From Desmodus rotundus (Eukaryota > Chordata > Mammalia > Chiroptera > Phyllostomidae): a stretch of 64,000 nucleotides of DNA. This document shows, piece after piece, positions 2,638-64,000 of this stretch; the first letter of the stretch is position 1, and each line of letters begins with the position of its first letter. The position numbers and the translations under genes were made by a program. The stretch lies in assembly GCF_022682495.2 (NCBI RefSeq), contig NC_071389.1:105131951-105195950 (forward strand), given 5' to 3'. Below the pieces are notes generated by a model that was given only the letters and a program-made list of their open reading frames with translations, was not told the DNA's origin and ran no database searches.

Positions 2638-24537
<21,900 letters not shown>

Positions 24538-37548: not shown

Positions 37549-38198
37549 CTGGAAGAAGAAGAAGCAGATATGGGAATGAGAACTCATGGTCACACAGATG
37601 ACAGGGAACAAGAATAACTCGTCAGTTACATGAATTTTCCATGTTAGAACAAGGCCCAGGGAGGCTGAATCTATGGATACAAGAGCTTTTCCTCCTTGAA
37701 TTTCCAACTACCTACTCACTGGGCTGTTTTCCAGGTGGATGGTTTTCTACATCCAGTCAGCTTATTTTGTTGGGGTTGTTCCTGATGCTGCCATCCTGGC
37801 AGAATTGCTACTGACACCAGAATCCAATCGATGTGTTCTGTTTCCCAAACAGATATTCAGAGAAACAACATTTTTCCAGCTGGACCAAAACTTTAAGATC
37901 ACACCCCTCATTTTATAGATTGAACAGAAATGATTGCAGGAGGTCACACGACTGACTAAGGAGAACTTGAGAGGAAAACTCAGGTGACCCTGACTCACAA
38001 CCAGCCCTGCAAACACCTTATTCTGTAACTTCCCAGTTTGGATTCCCACTAGGTGGCCTAGGGACACTATGCAGGGGCTAATTTCTTTCTTTTTTTTTGC
38101 ATATTTTTCTTGGAAGGAACTTATAGATTATTTCCTGGGGTACTTGTAGTCAAATTGGACAGAAAAATAAACATAGAAACCCCTAACGGTTTCCTTAC

Positions 38199-40195: not shown

Positions 40196-41275
40196 ACCTG
40201 GTGCCATTCTCACCTCCACCAACAGTTCTTGATGGTGTTTGTGCTGGAAGTTGAAATTTCAGTGGCTGTGTCTTTTGGATGTGGCAGTTGGGTTGAGCAT
40301 GGGACTGAGCCTCCTGGTATCCCAAGGTGATGGACAAAAAACAACCTTTTTGTTGGCCAAAAGGAGGACAAAGTTAAGTGACGCTGGGAGATAAGCCCCC
40401 ACAGCCCACAGCAAGCCCTCCTGTCCCTGGTCAGTGGTGTGATTGTGGGACACACTGTTATTCTGGGCCATGCCTTGACACTTCAGGCTGTGGGCCTTTA
40501 TTCCATGCTGACCTTCCTGCAAGCGACAAAGTCAACACAGGTGCCTTGGATGTGCCTGAAGCAACCTTGGCAGTGGTCTTTTCCTTCCCCGCATTGTTGT
40601 GCTCCTCCTCACCTGTGTGCATAGCAGGAACACCTCTGTCCAGCACTAGATGAGCAGGCAGGCTCCGGGGATATGTCAGAATGTCCTAGGGCACTCTAGG
40701 GTGGCTCCAGGAGGCAGGAGTGAAAATATCCCAGAGGCTTACTCTGGGATAAGGTCCATGGAAAAAGAGAGATAAATTAATAAATAGTAAGCATAGGATG
40801 GAAGGTAACCTGTCTTCTAATCAAAGCAGAGCTTTGCTAGGTCTTAATCCTACCTAGGTCAAGGATTCTATAGATCTTTGAGAAACAATTCCAGCACAAC
40901 TCGTCCTGGAGAAGCAAGCCTGGAATGCCTCCTACAAAATGCATCACTTGCTGAATAAGCTACTCAATAGCTACTCAGAATACACAGTAGAGATTTAAAA
41001 CAGTTCTAGCAACTGCTTCAAGGAACATGAGCTAGGAAGACCAGATACCCTGCTGAAACAGGTACAGAGTCTCTCTGAGCATTAAGCCAGGCAGCCCACT
41101 CAGGCTAGACCTTTCCCACCATACAGCAGCCCCAGTCTTGAATTGTTCTCATCAAGATAGGACTTTGGGGTAACACATTTCCTTACCAAACTCATTGCCT
41201 TCAATCTAGCTGAGTTCTCTAAGTTTAAATACCTTTGATTTTGCTAATGTTTGTGAAAGTAAGATGACTTTATCA
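40196..41275. other. Intergenic stretch without recognised gene
   Basis: No supported exon. Overlapping ORFs at 40.2-40.65 kb occur on both strands of the same sequence without homology. Confidence 0.4.
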
Positions 41276-41648: not shown

Positions 41649-43399
41649 TTGACCTCAGAAAGTTCACAGTTCACTGGATGCTCCATCTGAGGCCCTGTCC
41701 TGAGGCTGAGATGCTGGCCAGATGGGTGTTCCATACCCATGTACTCCCTGTTTGTGCTTCGAGGCGCACATTGTGGTCAAGGGGGCACGGCAGCACAACC
41801 TTGGCTTCTTCTGTGAGCTCCAAACTCATGAGACGAAAGGGAGGAGAGAGGCTCTGAGGCTACTCCAGCATGAAAAGTTCATTGGATCTACGTCTTACTA
41901 CTCCATTAATTGAAATTAATCTTCTGAATTATTCTTGGTACCGTTCTCTACCTCCCTCCTACCACACCGCACACCTTCCACAACCCAGCGTACAGCCCCT
42001 GAAAGTCAAACAAGACGTACTGGAAACTGTCTGGTGGACAGTAGGTCTGGGGGAAAGACCAAGAGATTGAAAAGAAACTTTCGGCCACCGCTCACATCCT
42101 GGCCTTAGCACTGCCTCCTTTCAACTCTAGTGAAATTATCTTAAACTTACTCAGCTTCCAAACTTACACTGAAGTACCTGATCCATTCAAGGACAATAAT
42201 CATGTCTTTACAAGAAAAATGAAGACTTCCCATCTTTCCCTTTGCCCTGTGCAGGCTACATGCATGTCTCGTTTAAGCCCCAGCAGAATAACACTGTTTT
42301 CTTCTTCTGGCTAAGTCAGAGGGCCTCAGAGAGGATCCATTTGACCAAAGCTGTGGAAAGTATTTTAATTCTAAAATGGACTTTAACTCACCATGTCACT
42401 CTGCTGATGTGGGCTCACCAGCATGTCACATCAAAATCAAAGGAAAGAATACACCTGAGCATGAGGGAGACTAACCCCGTGATACTGGAGGCCGTGTCAC
42501 AGTCCCTGCAGGATGGGGTCAGGTCTGATGAGTGTCCAGCAAGGAGAGAGGTACTGGGGTGGCAAATCATCAGCCTTGAGACATTAATTTGGTGAATGAG
42601 CATCAAGCACCTACTATGTGCAGGAGTCCATGCCAGGTCCAAAGACATGTAAAAGGGCACCTGTGCAAGGTGTGTTCACCATGGTTTCCTTCAACGCTTA
42701 GGGTTTGGCAATCATGGAGGAGTGTGCAAGTATCAAAATGATTTAAAATAGCCTGGTAAAAGCTACACTCCCAGTACTTGACCTAAAGACCAATGCAAGG
42801 CAGCTCATTCTTATTTTTAAATTATAATTTCTCTCACTTCAGCATTTACACTTCCATTGTGGTGGAGCAGGAAATGGTGACTGAAGGCAAGTACGTGAAT
42901 ATTTACCTCTAAATTGGCTTTATAGAAATGTATTTAATGGAATGTTATCTAGGCATTTAAGTATGCTAAATATTAAATATGCTAAATAGACCTAAATACA
43001 CTTATTTGGAAAGTTATCTAGGAGATACAAAGAAAAATGCAAGTCCTTAAAATTATATACTGTGTGTGTGTATGAGTCCCTATCTATACATATATATACA
43101 TACATGTGCATGGAAACTTTCTGTGTAGAAATTGAAATTCATGAACATTGTTACTAGGAGGCAGAAGTGGCAAATTAGGCTGTAGAGTGGGATCACAGAA
43201 ACAACTACTATTTTTTATTTTCTATTCTTATATGCTGTTTGATTTTTTTCCCTAAAAATGAGCACTTTCACAATGGATTAAAAGGGTTTTAAAGTTATTA
43301 ATGTATTTTTGTTATTACCAAAGAATTATATATCCAGAAAAGCTAATGAACAATTTCAAAAAATGAATAAAACATAATGTTATCTACAGAGAGGTTTGT
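41649..43399. other. Intergenic stretch without certain gene
   Basis: Contains a possible decayed WD exon near 42392-42440 (minus), listed separately, and microsatellite-like TG/TA sequence around 43050-43100. Otherwise nothing is recognised. Confidence 0.4.
42392..42445 (-). pseudogene. Possible further WD-repeat exon remnant with a TGA
   Basis: On the minus strand the frame reads TCW, stop, AHISRVT and then meets the donor ATG|GTGAGT. WDR49-type proteins have a W-R-A-H...V-T motif after the blade found at 44032-44168, so the TGA (42415-42417) would sit where Arg (CGA) is expected. The acceptor and the reading phase to the preceding exon are not resolved. Speculative. Confidence 0.3.
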
Positions 43400-44031: not shown

Positions 44032-44168
44032 TCTTGGGAGCCTGTAGCTCTGGTCCCCACAGGCTGTAGTCCTTGGTGTCATAGATACACACAAAACCTT
44101 CCTAGTGAGCCACGTAGGCTAGGGCATCTCCTGCTGTCACTACTATGCCGCTGACTTGGGCTTTGTTC
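44032..44168 (-). pseudogene. WD-repeat exon with in-frame TAG
   Basis: 137 nt between TTTTAGTCTAG| and AAGA|GTAGGC on the minus strand. It encodes a WD blade: IVVTAGDALAYVAH, stop, EGFVCIYDTKDYSLWGPE. The TAG (44102-44104) falls where relatives have a Gln- or Arg-type residue, consistent with a single CAG-to-TAG change. The first base completes a codon left by the exon at 44933-44990. Confidence 0.7.
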
Positions 44169-44194
44169 CTAGACTAAAAGACATGCCCATCTGA

Positions 44195-44702
44195 CACACA
44201 CACATACATACACACACATGGCCCATCTGTGTTTCTCTTTCTCTCTCTTCTCTCTCTTTCTCTCTCTCACCCACACACAGCCCATCTCACACACACATAC
44301 ACAAGACCCATCTCTCTCACACACACATGGCCTATCTCACACACACACACACAAGGCCCATCTCATACACACACACAAGGCCCATCTCATACACACACAC
44401 AAGACCCATCTCACACACACACATGGCCTATCTCACACACACACACACAAGGCCCATCTCATACACACACACAAGACCCATCTCACACACACACATGGCC
44501 TATCTCACACACACACACAAGGCCCATCTCATACACACACACAAGACCCATCTCACACACACACATGGCCTATCTCACACACACACACAAGGCCCATCTC
44601 ACATACACACACAAGACCCATCTCACACACACACACACACAGGGCCCATCTCACACACATACACAAGGCCTATCTCACATACACACACACAGGGCCCATT
44701 CA
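44195..44702. repeat. CA-rich minisatellite with higher-order units
   Basis: About 500 bp of (CA)n interrupted every 24-28 bp by GGCCCATCTC, GACCCATCTC or GGCCTATCTC. The three variants recur in fixed order: 'atggcctatctc' starts at 44327, 44423, 44495 and 44565, giving a roughly 70-72 bp higher-order unit. No stop occurs in any + frame, which produces long spurious ORFs. It directly abuts the WD exon acceptor. Confidence 0.9.
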
Positions 44703-44932
44703 CAGATGAAGCTCACCTGTCAGACAATGGCAAGTGAAACACTGTAACTTATCTATGGTAAGAACCAGACTCTGTATGTATTAATCTCCAGTAAATAGAA
44801 ATGCTGTGCAGATAAATAAAGATAAGAACTTGGAGACTGGCAGAATCTCCAGGTCACACAGCCAGGTTGGTATCAAAGAAAATCAAAAGAACCTTAAGTA
44901 TGAAAGTTATTTCCATCAACTGCCCAACTTAC

Positions 44933-44990
44933 AGGAGTGAAGTTTGCAACAAGACTGGTCCCACCGATAGCCTCCAGAAGGTGATAGAGC
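44933..44990 (-). pseudogene. WD-repeat exon
   Basis: 58 nt between a strong acceptor (ctcctctgctgccaccccag|) and a perfect donor (ACTCCT|GTAAGT). It encodes GSITFWRLSVGPVLLQTSLL, a WD strand-c/d segment ending in a Trp. The entry phase fits the exon at 45217-45312 and the exit phase fits that at 44032-44168. Confidence 0.7.
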
Positions 44991-45216
44991 CTGGGGTGGC
45001 AGCAGAGGAGGGCCCTGGGATGTTGGCACTTGGAGGCGGTGGCTGAGCTCCTGGGGCTGAGTGAGCCAGGGCTCAGAGTAGAGAGAATGAACAGCCAGAG
45101 GGAAATGGCAGAGTGAGCGGAAGGAAGCTATAAATGCTGAGGGACCCTCCTCCCAAAACAGAGCCTAGAATGGCCTATCTGAGAAGGAGCAGCACAATGC
45201 GTGGGCCCATTGTCAC

Positions 45217-45312
45217 CTTAGGGTCCACTGGCCACCAGGGAAGCAGCAGCTGACTCCAACTTGGCCACCCAAGTCTTCAGAAAGGTAAGACAGATAACAC
45301 TTAGATCTGGGC
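45217..45312 (-). pseudogene. WD-repeat exon with in-frame TAA
   Basis: 96 nt between CTTCTGTCACCAG| and CTAAG|GTGACA on the minus strand. It encodes LSVICLTFLKTWVAK and AAASLVASGP followed by TAA (45218-45220) just before the donor. Related proteins, as I recall them, have Arg there (SGPRG). The phase fits 57985-58089 upstream. Confidence 0.7.
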
Positions 45313-47150
45313 CTGGTGACAGAAGAGAGATTTTGTTGTACTCCCCATGGAACTCACAGCTTTCTCTGGCTTCTGGTGCAGCTGCCCATGTGTCACAGCA
45401 CCGCCCTAAGGCTGGACATGCTGTACACTTCAGGGCATGTGGCCTCTGGTTAAGAACCAGCCCAGCCTGGCTGGGATCACAAAGTCAGATGTGAAGGCTA
45501 CTAGCCTCAGCATTGCTTCAGCACCCCAGGACTTTTGGAGAAAGACAGGGATTGGGAAGTTGGTGTGGACTTGAGGGAGGGGCTGAGAGACCTGGGAAAA
45601 CCAAGCAGGAAGGACGTGGGCTTAGCTTGGGACCCTCTGGGTCCTTCTCAAGATGTCCCACTCTCTAGGAATTTCTGGATTGAAATGAAGATAGTTAACC
45701 TTTAGGTCACTTTTAACATTTTTTAAGATGTAAAGTCATGTGACATCACAAGGTATTAGATTATTAGTCCCACATCAGATGAGGAAATGGAGACTTAGAA
45801 AATGGTTCAAGGCCATAAAGATGCTCATCCTTTCATTCCCTTGTTTTTTATTGGCATTGGTCAAATCTCTAGTAGGATCTAGGCATCAGGCTGAGTGCTG
45901 TGGAAAGAAGGGGAAACAGAGAGCCAAACCAAACCAAAAAGAACTACCCCGAAAGAATGGGAAAGGTGCTGCTGGTACATAGAGGAGGGGCTTTATTGTG
46001 TGTGGAGAAGGCAAGGGTGAAAGAGGTCTTTCCAAGGGGAAGGACCAGCAATGGATATAGAATCTCAAAAGGTGGGTTGGGCACTGGGCAGTGAAGGCCA
46101 TGCTAGGAAGCATTGATGTTAAACCTTGATCTTCATAACAGAGTTAAGTGTTGAAAGAACTTCTGAAACCATATCCCTATCTCCCCAGTCTCTACTCTTC
46201 CTGCCCAGACCATCAGCACCATCCACACAGGGGCCACATGTGTCCTTTTTAGCATTTACCTCTAATCCTATCACAGTGCTTACTTGGTATGCAGAGTCCC
46301 AATATTTGTTGTTGAATAAAAATCCTAAAAACCTACCTAGATGCAAACCTCCAAAAGCCAAGGGAATGTTGCTACTTGGATATTGGAAGTCTCTCCTTAT
46401 TATACCCTTCTTGTTTCTGCAGGCTCTGGGGGTACATGCCCAACTGGAGGTGAAGCCAATGGCCCCATGTCAATAAGGAGTGATATAAATAATGGGGTTG
46501 GTGCTGGAATAGACACAAGAGGTACACTCTCAGATCTTACCACCATGGGGACATTCATGAGTCAGGCTATTAACCATTTAACAATATTTATTTTGGCTTG
46601 ACTCTGTGCCTGGCATAGTGTTGTGCACTGAGGAAGCCACAGTGGGCATGGCTGGCTAAGGCCCTGCCCTCAAGTGGACGATGATCACGGCCAGGATGAT
46701 TTGCTAAAGGACACTTTCTGTGCTAAGCACTTGCTCAATATTCCCATATTTAATCATCACAACAACCCCAGGTAGACATTTTGCTCCTGATTTTATAGAG
46801 ACTGTAACCCTGAGACTGTGGTTTAGAAATAAATGTATTGCAAAGTCCCACAGCTAATAGATGGAGGAGCTGAGATTCAAATCTAGATGTGTTTGCATCC
46901 AAAGCCCTCTTGATATTGGGCTCTGTTGTTGTCTTTGGGGGACTGAGGATTCTCAGAGGCAGGTGAGAGGGCCACTCACATGGCAATGTGGCTCCTGCCT
47001 TGGTTCTCAGACCCAGTGTCCTCCCTGATGCCTGGGATGCACCACTAGTTATCTGGGCCGTTTTCTTACTTCTGGGTTATTAAGCTCTGGGGTCACTGAC
47101 GTATGGAACAGAGTGAGGGGGAGTAAATGAGGGGTAGGCACACAGAGCAA
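45313..47150. other. Intron-like or intergenic stretch with old repeats
   Basis: Contains old repeats near 46560-46680 (caatatttattttggcttga ... 'gccctgccctcaagtgg') and a MIR-like core at 46730-46890 (aagtcccacagctaatagat ... 'ggagctgagattcaaat'). No further exon could be identified. Confidence 0.4.
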
Positions 47151-47182
47151 AGATAAATTCCCTTCACTAAGAATAAAATACC

Positions 47183-49066
47183 ATGAAGATGTAGGTGTAG
47201 GTAGATATGCTTTGCTTCCTCACACAACCAAAGGAAAGATAACAACCAATTTAAAAACAAAAAACAACCAGAACTGCCAAGAAATTGAACTGTATGGAAG
47301 TCCAACAACCAAGGAGATAAAGAAGAAACATTCATCCAGCCAGGTAGGAGGGGTGGAGACGGAGAACTTGGGCAGAGAGGACACACAGCAAGGCAGCGAG
47401 TGGCAGACTAGGAGGTCCCATATTTGTATGTGGATAAACCGGGTGGGACAACTGGGGAGTGAGACAGACTGCACAACACAGGGTTCCAGCGTGGGGAAAT
47501 AAAGCCTCAAAACCTCTGACTGAGGAAATCTGTGGGGGCTGTGGCGGTGGGAGAAACTCCCAGCCTTATAGGAGAGTTTGCTGAATAGACACTCAGGGTC
47601 CTAGAATGTACACAAACCCACCCTCCTGGGAATCAGCACCAGAAAGGCCCAATTTGCTTGTGGGTAGCAGGGAAAGTGACTTGAAAGCCAGCTGAGAACC
47701 AAGCACATTGCAATGTTCTCTCCCTGACCCCGCCCCCACATACAGTGCCACAAAACAGCAACAGTGGGGTGCCCTGCCCTGGAGAATACCTAAGGCTCTA
47801 CCCCTTACAACGTAATAGGTGCACTGAGAAAAAGAAATATGGCCCAAATGAAAGAAAAGGTCAAAACTCCAAAAAAATAACTAAGTGATGAGGAGATAGC
47901 CAACCTATCAGACGCAGATTTCAAAACAATGATAATCAGGATGCTCAGAAAAGGTTGAGTACAGCTGAAAAATAAAGAAATGAAGGCTATAAAAAGTGAA
48001 ATAAAGAAAAATACACAAGGAACCAACAGTGAAAAGAAGGAAACCAGGACTCAAATCAATGATTTGGAAAAAAAGAAATAAATAAAGATTCAACCAGAAT
48101 AAAATGAAGAAACGAGAATTCAAAAAAAAAAAAATGAGGCGAGGCTTAGGAACCTCTGGGACAACTTTAAATGTTCCAACATCAGAATCATAGGAGTGCC
48201 AGAAGAAGAATAGGAAGAACAAAAAATTGAAAACTTATTTGAAAAAATAATGGAGAACTTCCCCAGTCTGGTGAAGAAACTAGACATGCCAGTCCAGGAA
48301 GCTCAGAGAGTCCCAAAGAAGTTGGATCCAAGGAAGCACATACCAAGGCACATCAGAATTACATCACTCAAGACTAAAGATAAGGAAAGAATCTTAAAAG
48401 CAGCAATAGAAAAGGAGAGAGTTACCTACACAAGAGATCCCATAACATTGTCAGCTGATTTCTCAAAAGAAATCTTAGAGGCAAGAAGGGGCTGGAAAGA
48501 AGTATTCCAAGTCATGAAAGGCAAGGGCCTACATCCAAGATTGCTCTATCCAGCAAAGCTATCGTTTAGAATAGAAGGGCAGATAAAGTGCTTCCCAGAT
48601 AAGGTCAAGTTAAAGGACTTCATCATCACCAAGCTTTTATTATGTGAAATATTAAAGGGACTTATCTAAGAAAAAGAAGAAGATCAAAACTATGAAGAGT
48701 AAAATGATAGTAAACTCACAACTATCAACACATGAACCTAAAACAAAAACAAACTAAGTAAACAACCAGAACGGGAACAGAATCACAGAAATGGAGATCA
48801 CATGGAGGGTCATCAGTGGGAAGGAGGAGAGGGCAGAATGGGGTAAAAAGGTACAGGGAATAAGAAGCGTAATTTGTAGGCATAAAATAGACAGGGGGAG
48901 GTTAAGAATAGTATAGGAAATGGAGGAGCCAAAGAACTTACATGTATGACCCATGGACATGAACTAAGGGGGGAATACTGATGGGAGGGGGTACAGGGTG
49001 AAGGGGAATAAAAGGGGAAAAATGGGACAACTGTAATAGCATAATCAATCAAATGTACTTAAAAAA
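47183..49066 (+). mobile_element. HAL1 (half-LINE), copy 1, older
   Basis: 1884 bp flanked by the duplication 'aataaaatacc' (47172-47182, 49067-49077). It has the 5' UTR, an L1-like ORF1 and the HAL1 3' UTR, and no ORF2. ORF1 has several stops; the longest remnant, 48250-48669, keeps the C-terminal domain (139 aa, e.g. EKERVTYTRDPITLSADFSK). Confidence 0.85.
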
Positions 49067-49968
49067 AATAAAATACCTTAACCAAAGAGGTGAAAGACTT
49101 ATAAAATGAAAACTACAAAGCACTCCTGAAAGAAAGATAAAAATAAATGGAAACACATCTCATGTACACAGATTGGAACACTTAATATTTTTTAAATGTT
49201 AATACTACCCTAAGTGAGCTACAGATTCAGTGCAATCTGTCTAAATTTAATAACATTTTTTGCAGAAATAAAAAAAATCCATCCTAAAATTCATATGGAA
49301 TCTCAGGAGTCCCTGGATAGACAAAACAATTTGAAAATGAAGAACAACACTAGAGGACTCACACTTCCTGGTTTCAAAACTTGCTACAATGATACAGTAA
49401 TCAAAACAGTGTGGTGTTGGCATAAAGACAGACATGCAAACCAATGGAATAGAATAGAGTGCCCCAAAATAAACCCTCACATACATGGTCAAGTGGTTTT
49501 TGACAAAGGCGCCAAGACCATTCAATAAGGAAAGGACCATCTCTTCAATGAATAGTGCTGGGGAAACTGAACATTCACATGGAAAAGAATGACGTTTGAC
49601 CCTTAACTGGCACTGTATACAAAAATTAACTCAAAGCAGATCAAGGACCTAAATATAAGACCTAAAACAAACTATTCTTAGAAGAAAACATAGAAGAAAA
49701 CTTCACAACATTGGATTTGGCAATGATTTCTTGTCTATGACACAGGCAACAAAAAAAAAAAAAGCAAATTGGACTTTATTAAAATTTTTTAAATTTGTGT
49801 ATCAATAGACACTCTCCACAGAGTAAAAAGATGACCCACAGAATAAGAGCAAATATTTACAAATAATATATCTGATAAGGGATCAATATCCAAAATATAT
49901 AGAAAACTTGTAAAACTCAACACAAAGAACAAACAGCCCTATTCAGAAATGGGCAAAAAACTTGAATA

Positions 49969-50193
49969 TGTCCTGGCTGGTGTGGCTTAGTTAGTTGGAG
50001 CATCATCCTATACACCAAAAGGTTGGGGGTTTGATTTCTGGTCAGGGCACATACCTAGGTTGCAGATTTGACCCCCAGTTGGGGCGCAAATGGGAGGCAA
50101 CCAATCAAAGTTTCTCTCTTACATCAACATTTCTCTCTCTCTCTCTCTCCCTCCCTCCCTCATCAATAAACTTAAAAAAAATTTTTTTAAAGG
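49969..50193 (+). mobile_element. VES-type SINE inserted in L1
   Basis: Head TGTCCTGGCTGGTGTGGCTT, 'ggtcagggcacatacctagg', a (TC)n tract and an A-rich tail. Flanked by the 9-bp duplication 'acttgaata' (49960-49968, 50194-50202). Confidence 0.9.
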
Positions 50194-50288
50194 ACTTGAA
50201 TAAGCATTTCTCCAAGAAGATATACAAATGGCCATTAAGTACAAGAAAAGATGTTCAACATCACTAATCATTAAGAAAATGCAAATCA

Positions 50289-52291
50289 GGAGAACCAAGA
50301 TGGTGGCGTAGGTAGACACACTGCGCCTCCTCGCACAACCAGAACTGACAGAAAATCGAACAGCAAGGAAGTCCGACACCAAGTAGATAAAAAAGAAACA
50401 TACATCCAGACTGGTAGGAGGGGCAGAGACTGGCACGCGGTCGGAGAGGACTCGGGTTGCCGTGGCAGGACCTAGACTGGCGGAGTGTGGGACCAACAGG
50501 GCAGACAGTCTGACCACTAGCAGACCCTGCGGCCCACATTCACGCAGATAAACCTAGAGGGCCAGACTCAGAGTGGCGGAGAACGGGGCAGGCAGAGTGG
50601 CGGGTAGCACCCCACGGCCCCACATTCGTGCACAGATAAACCAGGACGAACGGCAGGGAGTGAAGCAGACTGCGTAACCCAGGGCTCCAGCGCGGGGGGA
50701 AATAAAGCCTCAAACCTCTGATTGAGAATGCCTGTGGAGGTTGGGGCAACAGCAGGAGAGACTACCAGCCACACAGGAGAGGTCGTTGGAAAGACCCACA
50801 GGGGCCTAGAGTGTGCACAGGCCCACCCACTCGGGAACCAGCACCAGAGGGGCCCAGTTTGATTGTGAGTAGCAGAGCGAAAGATTGAAATCCGGTGGAG
50901 TGGACACCATTGCTCCCTCTCCGCCCCTCCCCCACGTACAGCATCACAGTGCAGCCACCAGCGTTACCCCGCCCCGGGAACACCTAAGGCTCCACCTCTT
51001 AAAGTAACAGATGCACCAAGACAAAAAAAAAAAAAAAATGGCCCAAATGACAGAACACTTCAAAGCTCCAGAAAAAATACAACTAAGCGAGGAAGAGATA
51101 GCCAACCTATCGGATGCACAGTTCAAAACACTGGTTATTAAGACGCTCACAGAATTGGTTGAATTTGTTCGAAAACCAGATGAAAAAATGAAGCCTATGC
51201 TAAGAGAAACAAGGGAAAATGTACAGGGAACCAATAGTGATGCGAAGGAAACTGGGACTCAAATCAATGGTGTGGACCAGAAGGAAGAAAGAACCATCCA
51301 ACCAGAAAAGAATGAAGAAACAAGAATTCAGATAAATGAGGAGAGGCTTAGGAACCTCCAGGACATCTTGAAACGTTCCAACATCTGAATTATAGGGGTG
51401 CCAGAAGGAGAAGAGGACGAACAAACAATTGAAAACTTCTTTGAACAAATAATGAAGGAGAACTTCCCTAATCTGGCAAAGGAAATGGACTTCCAGGAAG
51501 TCCAGGAAGTTCAGAGAGTCCCAAAAAAGCTGGACCCAAGGAGGAACATACCAAGGCACATCATAATTACATTCCCCAAGATTAAACAGAAGGAGAGAAT
51601 CTTAGAAGCAGCAAGAGAAAAGGACACAGTTACCTACAAAGGGGTTCCCATAAGACTGTCAGCTGATTTCTCCAAAGAGACCTTACAGGCAAGAAGGGAC
51701 TGGCAAGAAGTATTCCAAGTCATGAAAGGCAAGAACCTACATCCAAGATTACTGTATCCAGCAAAGGTATCATTTAGAATGAAAGGGCAGATAAAGCGCT
51801 TCTCAGATAAGGTCAAGTTAAAGGAGTTCATCATCACCAAGCCATTATTATATGAAATGTTAAAGGGAGTTACCTAAGAAAAAGAAGATAAAAAATATGA
51901 ACAGTAAAGATGACAGCAAACTCACAGTTATGAACAACCACACCTAAAACAAAAACAAAAGAAAACTAAGCAAACAACTAGAACAGAAACAGAACCACAG
52001 AAATGGAGATCACATGGAGGGTTATCAATAGGGGAGTGGGAGGGGGAGAGAGGGGGGAAAGGTACAGAGAATAAATAGCATAAATGATAGGTGGAAAATA
52101 GACAGGGGGAGGCTAAGAATAGTGTAGGAAATGTAGAAGCCAAAGAACTTATAAATATGACCCATGGACATGAACTATAGGAGGGGAATGTGGGAGGGAG
52201 GGGGTGGGCAGGATGGAGTTGAGTGAAGGGGCAGAAATGGGACAACTGTAATAGCATAATCAATAGATATATCAAAAAAAAGAAAAAAAAT
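50289..52291 (+). mobile_element. HAL1 (half-LINE), copy 2, full length and young-looking
   Basis: 2003 bp flanked by a perfect 15-bp target duplication 'agaaaatgcaaatca' (50274-50288, 52292-52306). Layout: GC-rich 5' UTR beginning near 'agaaccaagatggtggcg', ORF1 at 51011-51877, and a purine-rich 3' UTR ending 'gggacaactgtaatagcata' plus an A-rich tail. There is no ORF2, so mobilisation must have used L1 machinery in trans. Confidence 0.9.
51011..51877 (+). pseudogene. HAL1 ORF1 (L1 ORF1p-like RNA-binding protein), one internal stop
   Basis: A 289-codon frame is open except for one TGA at 51386-51388, which separates a 125-aa N-terminal part (coiled-coil-like, ending RLRNLQDILKRSNI) from a C-terminal part containing the L1 ORF1p RRM and C-terminal domain (GVPEGEEDEQTIENFF, RIPRHIIITFPK-like). 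Both parts are in the same frame, so only this stop breaks the reading frame. A CGA-to-TGA change by CpG decay is a likely cause. Confidence 0.8.
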
Positions 52292-53068
52292 AGAAAATGC
52301 AAATCAAACCACAATGAGATACCACTTCAGACCATTAGAAAGGTAATTATAAAACAAACTAAGAAAGAGAACATAACAAGTATTGGTACAGATATACGGA
52401 AATCAGAACCCTGTTCACTACCGGGGGGAATGTAAAATGATTCAGCCACTGTGGAAAACAGCATGGAAGTTCCTTGAAAAGTTAAAAATAGAATTAACAT
52501 ATGATTCAGCAATTTCACTTCTGAATGTATACCCAAACAAAGAATTAAAGCAGGGTATCAAAAAGATGTTTGTACACCCATGTCATAGCAGCATTACTCA
52601 CAATAGCTAAAATTTGGAAGTAACCCAGTGTCCACCAATTGATGAATGGATAGCCAAATGGTGATTTATACATACAATGGAATATTATTCAGCCTTAAAT
52701 GGAAGGAAATTCTGATATATGTTACAACATGGATGAAAGTTGAGGATGCCATGCAAAGTGAAATAAAACAATCACAAAAAGACAAATACTGTGTGATTCT
52801 ACTTATGTGAAGTACTTAGAGTCAAACTCACAGAGACAGAAAGAAAATGTAATAGTGGTTGCCAGGAGCTGAGGAAAAGGGAAAACGGGGAGTTATAGTT
52901 TAGTAGGTATCAGCTTCTGTTGTACAAGATGAAAAGAGTTATGGGCATAGATGGTGAAGGCTGCACAACAATGTGAGTGCACTTAATACCATTGACTTGT
53001 GCACTTAAAAATAATTAGGATAATCTTTATGTTATGTGTATTTTATTTACCACATTAAAAAAAGAAGA

Positions 53069-53690
53069 AAAAGGCTTAGTTTCTCAGGTAGCTCACTGAT
53101 TTCCTGGATTTTAGCCTGGTTGAAATCTCTTGGTCTCTCTCACTCTTGAATTCCTCCTCCTTAATGTGGGGGAAGAAGTTAACAATCCCCAATGTAATGA
53201 ACAGTGAAGCTAAAATGCTGAAAAGTTGGCAAGAAGAACCTGTTTCTAGCTCATCTGGCTTTGCTTGCACAATTGCCTTTCTCAGTTCCCCTCTCTATGG
53301 AGAATGACTTCAGAATTGTCCAGATGGTTTTGCAAGTACAAAGGTGACTTCTTCACCAGCCCCATGGAAAGACCACTGTGTCCTGATCTGACCTTCAAGA
53401 AGAGCCTGTACTGTTGTTCCTGGAAGAATGAGGAACTTTCACAAATTTCCATCCCATTTTTGCAATTTTTGCAATGCAGACATGAATTCTTGGTAGCTAT
53501 GGCTGGCTGAGCATTTTTGGAGCAGAAAAGCAGTTTCTCAAAACCAGCCATCACATAAGTTTAAGTAGAAAATGCTGCTGCAAATACGGTTTTAAGTGAG
53601 AGCTGCTGGCTTAAAGGTCGACGTTGCATTCTTGGCTGGTGATTTTATTGTTATTTTAATGGCAATGAAAATAAACCTTTCGGTTGGGCC
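53069..53690. other. Unassigned stretch with a long open frame on the minus strand
   Basis: On the minus strand 53282-53554 (90 aa, Cys-rich: LHCKNCKNG) and 53076-53270 (64 aa, LFSILASLFITLGIVNFFPH) are two adjacent open frames in different phases. I recognise no family. It could be an old frameshifted retrocopy or chance. Confidence 0.3.
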
Positions 53691-53706
53691 CTCCCTAGCT
53701 GCAGAG

Positions 53707-54750
<1,044 letters not shown>

Positions 54751-56450
54751 CCTGACAGGAGCTGAGGCCTCCTGCCAGGTGACTACTAGTCCATCCATAC
54801 TGCTTCGTTGATAAGGACAGCAGACTCAAAGCACTAGTATTGCACACAGCACTTAATGGACTGGACTCTTGCCACGGTCCTGGAGGCAAGTGTTTGGAGC
54901 GAGGCAGGGTGGTTGGCACTCCATTCCCATTTGGAGGAGCTTCGTACCCTTGCCTCTGTGCCCAGCACCTTCCTTTTCTACCCGTCTAAAGTCCTGCATT
55001 CAATGTGTGGAGTTCCAGCTTCTGGTTATCATTATGGCTGTGTGTGTCAGTTGGTCAGCCTCAGGATGTTTGTGTACATGTGGCTTTCAGCCTTATCTCC
55101 TACAACCTCTGTGCCTCAGCCTGAGAGAGAGGAGATGCTCTTGGATGCCCACTACATCAGGGCTGCAGGGCCAGAGCTATCCTGACCTCTAGGTCAGTCA
55201 GCTTCCTTCAGGTTTCACAAAGTTAGGCTCTAGGCTGGGTAGGAATGGCTGCTGGGACACTAATGAGGAAAGTGAGAAGGCTTGCTTTGAAAGTGTACAG
55301 AGCTTCCTGAGAGAAAAGTAGACAGGTTCCAACTTGGACATTCATGCTCAAGTCATACATAGAACAGAGCTTTGAGACACAAGAGCCAAGGATTGTGCAT
55401 AAGTTTCAAATTGCAGACACATACAGCTTTGCTCTTTTAGCACCAGCTCTTGTTCCCTGTGCTGGGTACCCAAGTCCTAGCAGTGTCATCTCTCAGTTCT
55501 AGGGTGCACACCTCTGTGTGGACTTTTGTGTATGTGTGCATGCTTGCACAGATGAATTTTCATACTGGCCTGCCTCTCTTCTTACCAAGTTTCTCTGCTG
55601 CCTAACCCTGTCCAGTGGGACATACAGTGAAAACCCCAGAGCAGTACTGCTTGACCTAACCTAAAGATTTTCAACTCAGTTTTAACCATTGAATGTTGGC
55701 CAAGTCTCACTGCAACCTGCCTAAGGCTGACTGGCTAGCCTCTTCTGTCCAGGCTACATCCTTGAGGAGCTTCCTTGCTGAGCAGAAAAAAATGGGGTCC
55801 AGCTTAGGCAGCTAACTCACCACCTGTCATCCACCTTATGGCAACGATAAAAATGTTGCCTTGTCTCTTCAAGTCAGTACCTTTGCCAGACCCCACTGTA
55901 ATGTTCCACAACACCCTCAGAAGTCAGGGCAAGTGGTGGATCACAGAAGCATATTTTCCTTTTCTGTTCATAGCTACTCATGGGAACCCCTCTCAGGGCT
56001 GCAGCCTAACAACTGGGCAGCTGTGCACTGCACAATTTGAAGAGCCATCACTCACATCCATTCAGTAGATGTGGGGCATGTGGAATTGGGCAGTATGGTG
56101 ATCCTGTCTTGTCACCTCCACTTCCACCTTCATGCCCCTTCTCTTCAGAAGGAAAGAGGATTTGGAGTCTCTAGGTTTATACTTTTCTTCTTTCTTTTGC
56201 CTTTTTTCTTTTTCTGACAAAAGTTTACTTCTAGTGTCTGATCTATGGCTCTTACCCCCAAAGCTGTTTATAGTTATAGTGCACTGGTGGACAGAGAGGG
56301 TGTGTGTGTGTGTGTACCTGTGTGAATTTTGGGAAGGGGTGTTTATTTTTAGTACTCCATTCTGGGGTTCTCTGGTGCAGTGTGTGTGCACAAACATGGT
56401 ACCTTCTCAAGAGTAGTTCTTTCAAATATAGTCATTGCTGGGAAAAAAAG
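54751..56450 (+). pseudogene. HIF1AN: HIF1AN pseudogene, 3'-UTR-derived part
   Basis: Sequence directly after the stop resembles the HIF1AN 3' UTR ('cttaatggactggactcttg', 'gttggcactccattcc', 'taaagtcctgcattcaatgt'). It continues without a clear break to an A-rich run near 56440-56465 (gggaaaaaaagaaaataaaag), which may be the remnant poly(A). The exact 3' limit is uncertain. Confidence 0.6.
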
Positions 56451-56465
56451 AAAATAAAAGAAACT

Positions 56466-57980
56466 TTAGAAGGAAATGCCACCCTTTTCCCCCAAAGATC
56501 TCAGAAAGAGCTTTAAAGCAAAATCTTTTTTTTATATAGTGAAGGAGAATAGGAATAGACAAGATAATAAGTCTCCAGGTAAAAATTTCTTTTTAAACCT
56601 GTGTGTCCACTGGTTTCAAGTTCTAACCAGTGTCTCTTAAGCACAGCAAGGCTAATTGCATGGCTGTATCATTATCCTACCTGTGTTGGGCATGTACATC
56701 TCATCTCAACCTAGACTGTGAGCCTCCTGAGGGCACCACCAGACTTCACATTTCTCTAGTCTCCTCTACCCATCTCCCATAGGGATGAACCCACAGGAGA
56801 GGCTTGAAGATAGTTTCTGGTGGAATGAGCCACTAGAGCTTTTCCTTGGGTGGTAAATTATCACATGCCTAAAGCAGGAGACGGTAACCTGGGGCACATG
56901 GCTCCCTAAGGGTTTGGGCTTCAGGAGATGTAAGGATTCTCCAATTTTATGCAAAAATTCCCAAGGCCTTGTGTTTCCCTGTCAGGTTCTATGGGGGTGA
57001 GGCAGTGGGTCCCTGGCTGATGGCAGGGACCCTGAGTGTTGGCAGACTGCCACTTGGGAAGAATGAATGGCCTTGGAGTTTGGAGACAGGGAGAGAAGTG
57101 GTAGGAAGCCTGTTGGGCTGCTGCAGTTGTAGCTGGTTTTCCAATCCAGCACAGCCAGCAATGAGACTGATAGATAGATGATCCTCCATATGACTTCTAT
57201 GTGTATTTTTCAGAAGGTTCAAGTCTTGGAGAAAGGTGTGATTACCAACCAGCACCTAGCACTGGGCCTAGACAATAGCAGGGGCTCATCACTACTTTTG
57301 GAATGAATAGTGAATGAATGGATCCATGATCACATTAGCAGAGAGAAAGGACCTTGAAGAAATGGGACCAGGACAGAATACTTGGGAAGGTTGGAGTGGG
57401 AGGGCGGGGAAATTTTTGCAATGCATATACAAATATTGAAGAGTAAGACAGACCCAGGTCAGGGGTATAGGGGATTTGAGCAATGTGAGGACCCTAGAAG
57501 CTGGGAGCCACCAAAAGGGGTTGATGATGAAGTGGCATAAAGATTTGTGAGTCACACAGATGAATGACATATCAGGATATGATGTCTGATCTGGGTTTGT
57601 GGGGAGGTTTGCTAGCTGGTGGGAAGGAGCACTTGGGTGGTGGTATTGAAAACAAAGGAGGAAAATCAGTGCTGTGAGAGCTGTGTACTGACAAAGCCCA
57701 AGAGACTCAGCAGGGGAGAGAGATTTTCAGGTGGGCAGTAGGTGAGAATAGGGCTCCTAGAGGTGGCAAGCTGACCCATGAGATGGGCTTTGATGAACAG
57801 GTGCCCACAGATGTGGATGAGCAAGTGAAACTCTTAAACTCCCTCCCAGCTTTGGGAATCTTCATCCTTCAAGTTAAACCTGAATCCAACCATTTCAGAA
57901 CTGAGGATCCTTTAGACAACTGGCCAGGAGTCCACACTTGCTGGGGCCTGTGCAGAGTGGCCACAGAGCCTGCCCCTTAC
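56466..57980. other. Intergenic or intronic stretch with L2-type fragments
   Basis: L2-like pieces at about 56690-56770 (ctagactgtgagcctcctga) and 57245-57310 (ctagcactgggcctagac ... gaatgaatggatc). No exon is recognised. Confidence 0.4.
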
Positions 57981-57984
57981 CTAC

Positions 57985-58089
57985 CTTCGCTATCTTCTGC
58001 TCCATCAAGGGGTCTCAATGTATTCAGCTTGCAGTACATGCGGCCTGAGATGACATTCCAAATGATAATCTCCCCACTGTGGCTAGAGG
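57985..58089 (-). pseudogene. WD-repeat exon (best preserved)
   Basis: 105 nt on the minus strand between a good acceptor (ttttcttcttgcag|) and GAAG|GTAGGT. It encodes SSHSGEIIIWNVISGRMYCK and then LRPLDGAEDSE, a classic WD blade (Gly-Glu-Ile...Trp-Asn) of the WDR49/WDR64 type. No stop. An alternative donor four bases on (GTAAGG) exists, but only the first keeps phase with the exon at 45217-45312. Confidence 0.8.
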
Positions 58090-58620
58090 CTGCAAGAAGA
58101 AAAGGTGGTCATTGAGCCCCATAGAGGATGTCCTCATTCTGCCCATGGTTCTGAGAAAGAAGAGACAGTGAGGAACAGCATAAGAAATCGAATCCCCAAA
58201 CATTCACAGCAAACTTCCTTTCATGTCACCTCTATGACAGAAGAGGCAGAGGGGTTCCCCCTTCTGTGATTGCTCACACCAAGGATTCACCTGGAACCGG
58301 TGGCCCAGAGGACCAGGAGCATTTCTCCATGTAGGAGTCCATGTGCAGATCACCCAGAGAGGTGCTGCATCTCCTTGGGTCAGTTTCATCACCCTCCCCA
58401 GGGGAGTGCTACTCCTAGCAGCTTCTTTATCTCCCATACTGCAGGCAAACAAATTATTTACAAGGAGCCCTCTTTGGGGATGAAATGCCAATGTAAATTG
58501 GACAATGGAACCGAAGCTCTGGTGCATTGGCTTGGTTTCCCAGCAGCCCGGAGCTAAACTCTAGGAGTGGTATCCCCTGACTCTCTTCCTAGGCTACCCA
58601 TCTGCCCCACTGTGGCTTAC
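58090..58620. other. Intron of the WD-repeat locus, no further exon seen
   Basis: A 107-codon open frame on the minus strand (58204-58527) has no WD motif and does not connect in phase with the flanking exons. Confidence 0.4.
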
Positions 58621-58676
58621 ATGTGGCATTAGGAACCGAAACACCTATGCTCCTGCAAAGATTTTCAGATAAGGAT
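58621..58676 (-). pseudogene. Probable WD-repeat exon
   Basis: 56 nt between acceptor ttcttatctttcttaaag| and donor CCACAT|GTAAGC on the minus strand. It encodes SLSENLCRSIGVSVPNAT, which aligns without gaps to the segment preceding the S-S-x-x-G-E blade in WDR49-type proteins, and its exit phase (one base) matches 57985-58089. No stop. Shorter and less conserved than the others. Confidence 0.5.
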
Positions 58677-61600
58677 CTTTAAGAAAGATAAGAAACCAAA
58701 ATGATTTTTTTTTGACAGGTGCTGTAGAGTTTGAATTGTCCCTGGGTATTGTCCTTTCAACTTTCTCACTGGATATAGTTTCTATGTGAAGTGAATTGGC
58801 TTCTCTTGCACTGGAAATGTGCCCTTTCTCCCTTGCCCTCATATACTCCCCAAGGAGCACATTTGAAGACCTAACATGTTCTTCTGCTTGAAAGCAGCTG
58901 TGAAGGTGGCATTGGACGATTGTTGGAAAAGGGAAGGTCAGTGGCTCTCTCCTTCCCACAATCTCTGCCACCAACCCTGCCTCCTTCACAGTCTGTGAGC
59001 ACTGATGTCTGCATTCCTCCTCCTGTGCCTCCCACTGCCTACACGGTGAGGTGGACATGCCTTAGCATGACTCTGGAGCTCTAACTGAACTTTCTGTCCT
59101 AATTTCCTCTTGTAGCTGGTGCTCTAGCTCCTCAAACTTACGTAGACCCTCCAACCAACTTGCTTCTCCTGCTTCCAGATGTGGCTTATGCCCTTCTCCT
59201 CATCTAGATGCCTGTCCCTACCTTGGCCTACTGAAAAATCCTAATCATATTAATATCCTTTAACATGTTACAGCAATGTTAGTAGTTCCAACCCTTGTGC
59301 TTCTCCGCAATTTATATGTTATTATGTCATCTCTCATGTTGTGTGGTTATTATTTTCTTAGTTTATATTCTTGCAGTCTGTCAGAATCTAGGCCAGAAAC
59401 CACATTTTATTTCTGTTTGTATCCTGTGTATCCATCCACTAAGCATGGCACTGTGAAAGTGTTTGAGAAATATGTGTTGAACAATTTGATAACTGAATGA
59501 ATAAATATTTGGATGAACTAACACTTCACTGATTCTTGCATGACTTTCGTCCTTGTGATGGCCATGCTTCCCTGAGGTATTTTCTGCATTTCATTCAACA
59601 TTCACTAATCTGCAAGTGCCATGAAGGCACAGACCGTTTTGCTCATCACTGCATCTTCAGAGAAGAACATATCCTTGACCCACAATAGGCATTGGACAAA
59701 TGCTTGTTGAATGAACATATATTTATTGAGCTTGAATATATATCTATAACCCAGGCACTGGGTTGGGTCCTGGGAATACCATAGAGTTTGTGTTCTAGTG
59801 ACTTGTGTTTTTGGAATATTTATGGGTAGCATTAGATAGGGTGGTACAGAGGTAGATGGCACAGTCACCTTTTTTTAAACACTTATCTCATTGTCTTGGT
59901 AGCCAGACAGTTTTGAGGGAGGTCATTCCGTCTTGGGAAGCTGTAGGAAGTTGGGGCCATTTTAAGTGCTGATGAGAATCACAAGAAGTCCCCTGATTGT
60001 GAGGCCGCAGAATATCTTTTCCTAGGCTCCCTGGCCACCCAAAGATGGCACAGCGAACAAGCACAATGTTGCATGACAGGCAGAAACAGGAAGTGGATTT
60101 CTCTTTGAGGAAAGTCACACCCACAACATCCTGGGTTGCCCTGCCTATGGTACGGGACTTCTGGCAGGATTCATGGACAGCTGCATGGATTTGCTTCTGT
60201 GATCTCACACCCCAACCCAAACCCGGGTCCATCCTTCTCCTTGGAGCGAAAGTGGCTGCCTATATGTCAGTGCACCTGGCTCTACCTGGACTCCAGGTGT
60301 GAATCTGCCACAGCAGAGGCTTTTGAGATGCTTGTGGCCACTCAAGGCAGGACTAGGAGAGTCAGGGTATGCCTCTGAGTGAAGGAGACCCTTGTCATAT
60401 GCCACTGTTTGGGTTGAGAGCCAGATCATGGACCAAGGCTCACCAGGTCATCCTGCCAGTGTGGCCACGACTTTCAGCAGTGATGAAAGTCACATGGTGC
60501 ATCCTGTTCCAAAGCCAAACAACAGACATACAAGCAGCGAAATGAACTGCCAGTATGCTTGAAACTTCAGAGAGAAGGCATTGGCATGTTGTAGGACTTG
60601 CCCCTCACCCCACCAGTGATGCAGATTTTCAAAATGTCAAAGCAAATTTCCCTAGTGCCGGTGGGAATAAAAAGCAATCCATTCCTGACACCTGGGTGAT
60701 TGCATTGCAGCAAATTATATGTCAACTGACAAGCTCCCCGTGGATGCGTGAATGGTCCAACACCTTTGCGTTCATAATAAGACTCATAACTGTTGCATGT
60801 GCAAAACAAAAGCCATCACTTTCAGAACCTGTGATACCAAAGGACAAATTCAAAGCCACAACTTCTCAGGTAGTCATCTCTAATCATCTAGGATGCAAAG
60901 CTCAGACTGTGCATTAAATAAAGAATTTTTGATGCTTAAAGACTTTCAGAAATTCATGACAATTCTGCATAGAAGGCAAGGGACATAGAATGCCACCAGT
61001 AGATTTAAACGTGGCTGCAGTCAGCATTTTTGTTTCCCTGTCTCTTTATCTCCTGCTCCAACTCTAAGCCACTAATAAAAAGGAGTTTCTTTCCATAGAG
61101 ATGCTGATGGATGTCATTTTATCTTCTCTTTCCATTTCAAGAGGGAATAGGGCATAAAGACAAGGCAAGGAGAAGAAGGAAGAAACTCAGGGGCTGAACA
61201 ATGACAGAATGAGTGCCCTTCAGTAGAGGAGGGTATATGAGATAGGCCAGGAACCCCTGCAGTCCAGTAGGAGGGAAAATGGTCAGCCAGTGCAAAGGGG
61301 AAGAAAACCAGGCAAGGTCTGGAGAGCTACAGAAGTCAAGCACAGTCTGCTTTGGATTCCTAGGGATCGACTTTTCTGCCCTCATAGCTTTTTTAGCTAG
61401 TACTTTGTTATATTGTGAGTTTATAATAAGAAATATATATTTGGTCTTCATCCCCATTTCTGGCTCAGAGCTCCTAAAAACCTTGGAATTTCCTATGTGA
61501 TAAGAGCATGGAAGCTCCACATCCCTTCCCACATAGCTCACCCTATGCATCCTTTCCATCTGCTGTTCCTGAATTATATCCTTTTAATTAAACTGGTGAT

Positions 61601-62226
61601 CTAGGAGATAAAATGTTTCTCTGAGTTCTGTGAGCTGCTCCAGCAAATTCATCAAACCCAAGGAGGGATCATGGGAACCTCCTATCTCTATATAGTCAGT
61701 TGCTGAGGAGCACAGGTGACAACCTGAGCTTTTGACTGGCATATGAAGTGGGGAAGGGGCAGTTTTGTGAGCCTGAACCCTTAAACTGTGGGATCTGATG
61801 TTATCTCCAGGTAGATAGTGTCGGAGTTGAGTTGACTGTAGGGCAACCAGCTGGTATTTGAGAACTGCTTGCTGGTGTGGGGATCCCTCATCCCAGAGTT
61901 GGGTGCAGAGTCATTAGACTTCTTCCCATAGAAGAGAAATAGAAGGAAGAAACTGAAACAAAGAAGGTAAAAAGGTGTTTTAAAGGAAAGAAGGAAGAAA
62001 AGACGGTATGAAAAAATGTAGGGAGGGAGGACACTCCTTTGTTTATATCATAGCTTGACTTATACCAGATAGCAGAGGCATAAAGAATTTCTCCAAAACA
62101 GGTTTCTTAAAGGGAAAAGAATGATGTGTATGGGGAGGAGGGGGGAGGGAGAAGAGGAGGAGGAGGGGAACAATATAAATCTGAAGCAGGATTTTGAAAT
62201 ATCATAATTTTGTATATTTCACTTAC
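58677..62226. other. Intron of the WD-repeat locus with L2 fragments
   Basis: L2 3'-end pieces at about 59385-59515 (ttgaacaatttgataactgaa) and 59600-59780 (caagtgccatgaaggcacag, aatgcttgttgaatgaac). A missing exon linking the blade at 62227-62268 to that at 58621-58676 is expected here but was not found. Confidence 0.4.
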
Positions 62227-62268
62227 AACATGTTTGTTCTTCTGTCCCATCCAACAGTGATGACATAT
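62227..62268 (-). pseudogene. WD-repeat exon (WD motif YVITVGWDRR)
   Basis: On the minus strand ttattctag| precedes 42 nt that end at ATGTT|GTAAGT. It encodes YVITVGWDRRTNM, a textbook end of a WD blade (Gly-Trp-Asp-Arg). The upstream sequence stays open in frame for some codons, so the exon may start further 5'. No stop within it. Confidence 0.6.
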
Positions 62269-64000
62269 CTAGAATAATACCAATGGTTACATTTCCATAC
62301 TTGGGCTTACCATCTGTTTAACTTCTGCATGGAGTCAGTACTTTGGCCCAACATTGCCATGTCCAGGTGATCAAAAAAGAGAGCAAGAAAACACTTCTGT
62401 TTGTGAAGAACAAGATAAAATATGATTTGATAAATTAGGGTTAGTGTTTTAACTGGTGCTTAAAGGATCAGGAAACAGACACAAGACACCTTGGGATCCC
62501 CAAGGTCCTCAGGTGCTACCTCATGAGCAGCTGACTTCCTTGGGGTCACTTCTAGGGGCATTCTTGAACCATGGAGGCAAGGACAAACAAACAAACTGAT
62601 CAAAAATTGTTTTTACCCTTTTAGTGCTCGGGAGGGAACTTGCTGGATTTTTATTCTTTGACTTATGGTTGCTGTATTTAATTAGTCTAGACTGTGATTT
62701 ATACCTTCCTAAAGCATTTGGGGGAGAGACACAGTGCTCCCTATTTCTAAACAGTCATCAAAATATGCAGAGGATGGCTTCCAATATTCAGGAAGAGGCT
62801 TGCTGCCTAAATCACCATCTGGGGGCAACCTGGGTCCTCAGGAGTTCCTCGACATATTTCCTTTTGGGCAATGCCCTTCACTGTCTTGGTGTCCTTCTTC
62901 AGGACAAACTTTGTATCAAAAAATGTGCCCCACTAAACACCACTCTTATATTTAAGCTGAATATAACTCACTTATTTTGGTTCACCTCCAAGTAGGTATA
63001 ATCTCAGACTACACTTGGCTTTTTGTCTAGAAAGACAACATTATCAACATTATTTTAAATGTTTCTCAGTTGGTCTTGAGTCAGTTTAGGCATATTGACT
63101 TAATCCAACTGATGATTAGAAAAAACTTAGGACTTTCTTCCTAGTTTTCAGACCACAGGCAGGTGATTTTGAAGCCTTCAAAGACCTGCTGATTTTCTTC
63201 CACCCTTGTTGCCCAAAAGGGCTGGAGCTGCCCTTGCCGAGCTGCAGGAAGGGGCTCCCCATCTCCTGATGGGTCCCTACAAAGAGCTCAGCACTCACTG
63301 AGCGAGTGAATGAACACATGAATGCAAGCAGGTGGAAGGCAGGTCTGAGAACTACACACGCATTCCTTTGAGTAAAGTTTGTCTTTTTTACTTGCACTTT
63401 GTTTATATTCTGACAGTGGAAGAATGTTTGCCTCTTACCTTCCTCATAGACAGAACTGTGCACATTTCGTCAAGAACAGACATAGCAAGTGAACAAAAGA
63501 AGTAGGTAGAATAAGTAGCCTTGAAAAAAATTACAATATCACACATAAGAGACTAGCTTTTAGTTTGTTCACCTACATTTTAATTTATATGATGTTTAAA
63601 ATGTTTAGAAAAGTGAAGCTCTTTTGACAAATCAGGTAGAAACCAGGCAGTGAAGAAACAAATGCTAGAGGCATAGCCAGGAGCACATTCCTTTATGCCA
63701 AATACATTCCTCCCACGTAGAAGTTCATTGTCATTGGTAATGAAATGCCAGAGAAAAAGCATTGTTTACGTGCATCCTATATTCTACATCCTTTGATTTT
63801 TTTATATGTGACAACAAATGCTTAATTGTGCATCACTACTTTGTGGGGACCCTTTGTAGGAAGTGACTTGTCAGGTCTCAGGGTGTATAGACAAGGCTTG
63901 CTGTTGTAGTGCCATATTTTCAGACAGCCATCTCTGCCTCTGGTCCCCAAAATAGGAAACAGGGTCTCCTGTTAGATGGCAGGTAAGGGATCACCTGCCC
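62269..64000. other. Right flank, no supported feature
   Basis: Further 5' exons of the WD-repeat locus would lie here, but none is recognised. Open frames at 62624-62995 (+) and 63116-63463 (-) have no homology or splice support. Confidence 0.4.

What the first reader, a model, noticed from the sequence alone, without database searches (positions are those of the whole stretch)
44032..62268. A decaying WD-repeat gene (WDR95-like) downstream of HSPH1 in a bat
Six minus-strand exons with WD motifs and splice sites lie over 18 kb, and the last five keep compatible reading phases, which is very unlikely by chance. Two carry in-frame stops, so the gene looks like a unitary pseudogene. By recollection the human copy (WDR95P) is also a pseudogene. 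If so, loss occurred in both lineages, either independently or from a shared relaxed state.
Basis: partly seen in the sequence, partly recalled or inferred. Interest (0 to 1): 0.75.

Follow-up and report, generated by a model that had tools for sequence, protein, structure and literature searches.

The report
Dead WDR95 gene beside HSPH1
This is the broken remains of WDR95, an old vertebrate WD-repeat gene whose relatives serve sperm tails and cilia; it is an ordinary lost gene, but probably one that several mammals, people included, have also lost.

Summary
The six exons are real minus-strand exons of WDR95 (also named CFAP337-like or WDR49-like), and they are the middle of a larger relic. 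Orthologous proteins align in order over about 116 kb, from ~152.3 kb (88 kb right of the window) to 35.9 kb; 12 coding pieces lie wholly in the window and one crosses its edge. The chain scores 979; 12 controls score 136-166.

I count ten premature stops (eight in the window), five frameshifts, a 79-nt interruption and two apparently lost acceptors. Invariant columns are changed in 24 of 127 cases, against 0-9 of 106-129 in each of 22 placental orthologues. Every genome match of 49% identity or more lies here. Order: HSPH1(+), WDR95 pseudogene(-), TEX26(-).

Human WDR95P also sits beside HSPH1 (PMC7890067); male mice with a partial Wdr95 deletion are fertile (PMC13253961). No bat or primate name appears in two fully listed protein searches (38 and 95 hits, overlapping), and eight mammalian models are labelled LOW QUALITY, so repeated loss is likely but not shown at DNA level. 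Best reading: an old unitary pseudogene, a new member of a known kind. Redundancy with WDR64 or WDR49 is inferred as the reason.

The parts
63867..64000 (-). WDR95 pseudo-exon A (whole: ext 64137-63867, cut by window end); 79 nt (64029-63951) break the frame: an insertion, or a mini-intron whose AG acceptor is lost
   Evidence: ref aa 532-595
62972..63026 (-). WDR95 pseudo-exon B; in-frame stop at 63006 (Cys in 28 of 30 relatives)
   Evidence: the TGA at 62970 is the splice donor GTGAGT, not a stop
62227..62268 (-).
   Evidence: ref aa ~614-625
60444..60503 (-).
   Evidence: ref aa 628-647
57985..58150 (-).
   Evidence: ref aa 648-703
45217..45312 (-).
   Evidence: ref aa 703-734
44933..44990 (-).
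   Evidence: ref aa 735-754
44032..44173 (-).
   Evidence: ref aa 755-802
42394..42432 (-). WDR95 pseudo-exon I; stop at 42417; no AG acceptor at the expected place
   Evidence: ref aa 802-814
41743..41826 (-). WDR95 pseudo-exon J; 1-nt deletion near 41762
   Evidence: ref aa 815-842
40566..40757 (-). WDR95 pseudo-exon K; stop at 40688; no AG acceptor at the expected place
   Evidence: ref aa 845-909
37447..37551 (-). WDR95 pseudo-exon L
   Evidence: ref aa 909-943
35943..36127 (-). WDR95 last pseudo-exon M; stop at 35986 close to the normal end, possible frameshift 35962
   Evidence: ref aa 955-1016
11650..11895 (+). HSPH1 exon piece, neighbour used as synteny anchor
   Evidence: Heat shock protein 105 kDa (6gfa_A), E 7e-49

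Best explanation
The locus is the old, unprocessed unitary pseudogene of WDR95, which I take to be a third mammalian CFAP337-type gene beside WDR49 and WDR64. Shown: WDR95 coding pieces in order and orientation between HSPH1 and TEX26, broken along the gene, at one place in the assembly, with conserved positions changed far more often than in orthologues. [quoted passage not shown] Its role overlapped with WDR64 or WDR49, so a first inactivating mutation was tolerated and the rest accumulated neutrally. From about 0.08-0.09 substitutions per site I put the loss very roughly at 20-75 million years ago, centre 30-45 (substitution rate recalled).
For: Orthologues align colinearly, score 979 versus 136-166. 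Ten stops and five frameshifts. Invariant columns changed 24 of 127, versus 0-9 of 106-129 in 22 placental orthologues left out in turn, pooled 58 of 2622. The bat tip has the longest branch of 33 taxa (0.331) and falls inside placental WDR95. Matches of >=49% identity are all this locus; the rest of the 34 are 40% or less. HSPH1 and TEX26 flank it; five TEX26 pieces show no stop. Male mice with a 25,302-bp Wdr95 deletion are fertile.
Against: No RNA data. The indel count (five or six) is lower than I would expect for that many substitutions, so the loss may be younger than the stops suggest, or some indels hide in unaligned ends. N-terminal exons are better kept (179 of 241 residues identical to the reference, 8 of 62 conserved columns changed). 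The mouse deletion left part of the coding region, so dispensability is not fully shown. Redundancy rests on paralogy, not on data from this species.
Confidence: 0.95

Rival explanations
1. The gene still works through alternative splicing or a shortened protein, for example one that keeps only the N-terminal exons.
For: N-terminal pieces are better conserved (179 of 241 identical to the reference), and seven of the first eight pieces carry no stop or frameshift.
Against: The stop at 135055 (ref residue 120) truncates early. Lesions are spread over the later exons, so I see no splice path that keeps a propeller. Conserved columns are changed well above orthologues.
Confidence: 0.03
2. The relic is WDR49 or WDR64, or a duplicate of a live gene, rather than WDR95.
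For: Many databases name the orthologues 'WD repeat-containing protein 49-like' or '64-like'. True WDR49 and WDR64 sequences were not in hand for a tree.
Against: Synteny beside HSPH1 and TEX26 fits WDR95P. Entries named WDR95 are among the hits. Solved WDR64 is only a distant relative of the family (129.6 bits). No genome match above 40% identity outside the locus.
Confidence: 0.02
3. The stops and shifts are assembly errors in an intact gene.
For: Not examined at read level.
Against: Lesions are dispersed over 100 kb. The neighbouring TEX26 pieces in the same contig show no stop. Amino-acid change at conserved sites is not expected from such errors.
Confidence: 0.01

Closest known systems
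Human WDR95P (13q12.3, beside HSPH1)
   Same: Same gene and neighbour; named as a pseudogene (PMC7890067, one table passage; PMC13253961 passages: Wdr95 'not found in human genomes')
   Different: Another lineage; whether any lesion is shared could not be tested
Mouse Wdr95
   Same: Coding orthologue of this gene, male-reproductive-organ enriched (PMC13253961 passages)
   Different: A coding gene in mouse, although males with a partial deletion are fertile; here the gene is dead
WDR64 (sperm) and WDR49 (other motile cilia)
   Same: Same CFAP337 type by inference; WDR64 is the best solved-structure match of the family (9fqr_No) and is described as a sperm-specific paralogue of WDR49 (PMC11779644 passages)
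   Different: Different loci; 40% identity or less to WDR95 in this genome

Membership tests
WDR95 (CFAP337-like) orthologue | Best sequence match to WDR95 proteins over most of the length | tested here: met
   640 of 881 mapped residues identical to the placental reference of 1016
WDR95 (CFAP337-like) orthologue | Exons in gene order on one strand | tested here: met
   chain 979 vs 136-166 in 12 controls
WDR95 (CFAP337-like) orthologue | Synteny beside HSPH1 and TEX26 | tested here: met
   HSPH1; TEX26 via a fused hamster model
WDR95 (CFAP337-like) orthologue | WD40 repeats | tested here: met
   WD40 PF00400 34.9 bits against cut-off 27 in the read-through middle part
WDR95 (CFAP337-like) orthologue | N-terminal EF-hand region | tested here: inconclusive
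   EF-hand PF13499 is precomputed for non-mammalian relatives and not among the families shown for P0040, P0003 and P0044; the bat N-terminus was not scanned
Unitary pseudogene | Inactivating lesions | tested here: met
   10 stops, 5 frameshifts, 2 apparent acceptor losses
Unitary pseudogene | No functional copy elsewhere in the genome | tested here: met
   one assembly, 34 matches of 50 scored candidates
Unitary pseudogene | Introns and original locus kept (not a retrocopy) | tested here: met
Unitary pseudogene | Loss of purifying selection | tested here: met
   24 of 127 vs at most 9 of 116
Unitary pseudogene | No protein made | not testable with these tools
   no RNA or protein data
WDR49 or WDR64 copy | Closest to WDR49 or WDR64 rather than WDR95 | tested here: not met
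   indirect, no tree with true WDR49 and WDR64

The most novel reading that the evidence does not exclude
WDR95, a ciliary-type gene with relatives listed from sharks to opossums, has been lost independently many times in placental mammals, including early in bats and in primates. Gene-loss screens that start from human genes would miss it, since the human reference has no intact copy. Its testis transcription unit may outlive the protein because the mouse gene hosts intronic piRNA clusters (PMC13253961).
Probability: 0.45. Interest if true: 0.5.

Novelty: new member of a known kind. Interest (0 to 1): 0.32.

Why it matters
It adds a well-mapped loss of a gene from a sperm-axoneme family, with a gene-wide lesion list against which other bats can be compared. 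With human WDR95P, fertile mice carrying a Wdr95 deletion and eight LOW QUALITY models in other mammals, it suggests a serially lost gene. Such a case allows a test of whether WDR64 and WDR49 made WDR95 redundant, or whether loss follows changes in sperm form. It also points to a blind spot of human-anchored gene-loss surveys.

Tried and rejected
A generic WD40 profile built from eight genome loci did not separate the exons from noise (pieces at 83.5 and 63.9 kb appear in the list with weak scores). Short motifs recalled from WDR49 and WDR64 found nothing. PDB searches with single exon pieces gave mostly generic WD proteins, with WDR64 at E 0.1. A genome search with one 30-residue piece found only itself. 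The 'stop' at 62970 reported by the aligner was rejected because it is the splice donor. The two stops inside the 79-nt interruption were not counted. A first count of changed invariant columns, 30 of 132, included frame-shifted ends and that false stop; the trimmed recount is 24 of 127, or 22-23 of 117-126 without stops or piece ends, and the age estimate was lowered to fit.

Independent versus shared loss with primates was not decided: no DNA of other mammals is held here. How well bats are represented in the protein database was not controlled; each row stands for a 90% cluster named by one member. The dating uses recalled rates (about 2 to 2.7e-9 per site per year) and my own arithmetic. 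For the invariant-column test I used 22 placental and 8 other orthologues of 129 proteins then in hand, leaving out LOW QUALITY models and many fragments.

No paper on loss of WDR95 was seen in the searches 'WDR95' (15 papers, titles and abstract starts), '4930434E21Rik' (1 paper) and 'WDR64/WDR49/pseudogene/gene loss' (10 of 3,439 listed). The old name 4930434E21Rik is recalled. PMC2864566, on human unitary pseudogenes, held none of the six terms asked in its main text. A search for 'piRNA cluster' with 'Hsph1' listed two papers, neither opened.
Full report
Where it lies. The window is G000:C3:105131951-105195950. 'ext' positions below continue the window numbering past 64000 into the next 100 kb and a further 100 kb of the same contig. 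An 82-residue plus-strand piece at 11650-11895 is Heat shock protein 105 kDa (HSPH1, E 7e-49).

What was found. A first query of four minus-strand exon pieces returned 38 proteins, all with mammalian names, many called WDR49-like, CFAP337-like or 'WD repeat-containing protein on Y chromosome-like'. A search with the meerkat protein P0003 gave 517 matches at E <= 1e-20, of which 120 were listed, from sharks to mammals. A third, with the read-through bat piece (X at breaks), gave 95, all listed, from the 7995 candidates scored. Several entries there are named WD40 repeat domain 95 (Nannospalax, Vombatus, Cricetulus, Amphiprion, Stegastes, Gadus).

The gene model. A placental reference (Fukomys N-terminus plus consensus, 1016 aa) aligned by tblastn falls in one colinear minus-strand chain of 27 pieces from ext 152316 to 35972, extended to 35943 by a frameshift-aware alignment. 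The same chaining scored 979.4 for the true case and 136.0-166.3 for 12 controls: the plus strand, reversed DNA on both strands, eight shuffled proteins and one reversed protein.

Lesions. In-frame stops: 135055, 83570, 63006, 60476, 58111, 45220, 44104, 42417, 40688, 35986 (and, for 45220; the last is near the normal end). At 58111 all 30 aligned relatives have Cys; at 63006, 28 of 30 have Cys; at 42417, 27 of 30 have Arg. Frameshifts: +1 at 83531 and -1 at 81658; an 8-nt tandem duplication near 73805; and 1-nt deletions near 44972 and 41762 (read by eye). A 79-nt interruption at 64029-63951 is either an insertion or a mini-intron with a lost acceptor. Pieces I and K lack an AG at the expected acceptor. 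A possible shift at 35962 is left open.

Relaxed selection. Of 127 mapped columns invariant in the other sequences (at least 15 of 30 present), the bat differs at 24 (18.9%; one of them a stop). For 22 placental orthologues, each left out in turn over the same mapped positions, the counts run from 0 to 9 of 106-129, pooled 58 of 2622; the highest are pig 9 of 116 and buffalo 7 of 118 (which replaces 30 of 132). In a FastTree of 33 taxa the bat piece falls among placental WDR95 beside the horse, with the longest tip (0.331); support values were not examined. My arithmetic turns 18.9%, less a 2% background, into about 0.08 substitutions per site; ten stops in about 900 codons give about 0.09. 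At recalled rates that is very roughly 20-75 million years, centre 30-45. The few indels do not fit an old age as well.

One copy. In the whole genome, P0003 gave 34 matches from 50 scored candidates. Every match of 49% identity or more lies in C3:105167919-105266924; all others are 40% or lower. Two of these, on C2 at 29.88 and 29.90 Mb, look by recollection like WDR49 exons.

Neighbours. A hamster model that fuses C13orf26 (TEX26) and WDR95 (P0145) aligned its TEX26 half to five pieces at ext 194824-178114, minus strand, without stops, just upstream of the pseudogene. That C13orf26 is TEX26 is recalled. In human, WDR95P lies next to HSPH1 at chr13 31.66-31.69 Mb (PMC7890067, one table passage).

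Function of the intact gene. The best solved relative of the family is WDR64 (9fqr_No, 129.6 bits). [quoted passage not shown] WDR95 is not mentioned there. PMC13253961 (passages) reports male-reproductive-organ-enriched mouse Wdr95, absence from the human genome, normal fertility after a 25,302-bp deletion that left part of the coding region (10.2 +/- 1.5 pups per litter, P 0.11 against wild type), and piRNA clusters in introns of Wdr27 and Wdr95. I infer redundancy with WDR64 or WDR49 as the reason loss was tolerated; this is not shown.

How widespread the loss is. Among 38 of 38 listed and 95 of 95 listed (overlapping) hits, none is named as a bat or a primate; one of the 95 (P0139) has no name. 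Of only 120 of 517 were seen, also without a bat or primate name (one, P0086, unnamed). How well bats are represented in that database was not controlled. Eight of the 169 proteins seen are labelled LOW QUALITY PROTEIN: Lycaon, Zalophus, Dama, Equus, Erethizon, Lagenorhynchus, Odocoileus and Globicephala. That this label marks models with mended stops or shifts is recalled. Repeated loss is therefore likely but rests on names and absence, not on compared lesions.

Verdict. Ordinary in kind; its interest lies in the repeated-loss pattern.

Noticed in passing
window 48214-48666 and 51389-51874, plus strand: Two LINE-1 ORF1 relics (Pfam Transposase_22 and Tnp_22_dsRBD) sit inside the 12.7-kb intron between exons E and F and run opposite to the pseudogene. 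The frame 51008-51385 beside the second gave no Pfam match.
   Followed up: partly
window 44261-44704: A CA-rich tandem array (24-base unit, 17.8 copies) lies about 90 bases upstream of exon H on the pseudogene's strand.
   Followed up: partly
window 1462-2517, minus strand: A 352-residue stop-free frame to the left of HSPH1, near its likely promoter; may be composition only.
   Followed up: no
P0145 (Cricetulus), P0035 (Tupaia): Public gene models fuse C13orf26, or a protein named ribosomal L6, with WDR95, so database names for this gene are unreliable.
   Followed up: partly
P0022 (Sus), P0080 (Bubalus): Pig and buffalo WDR95 models show raised change at invariant columns (9 of 116 and 7 of 118), a hint of relaxed selection there too.
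   Followed up: no
C2:29879222-29904774 of the own genome: Two open WD exons resembling WDR49 by recollection, so a paralogue seems present.
   Followed up: partly
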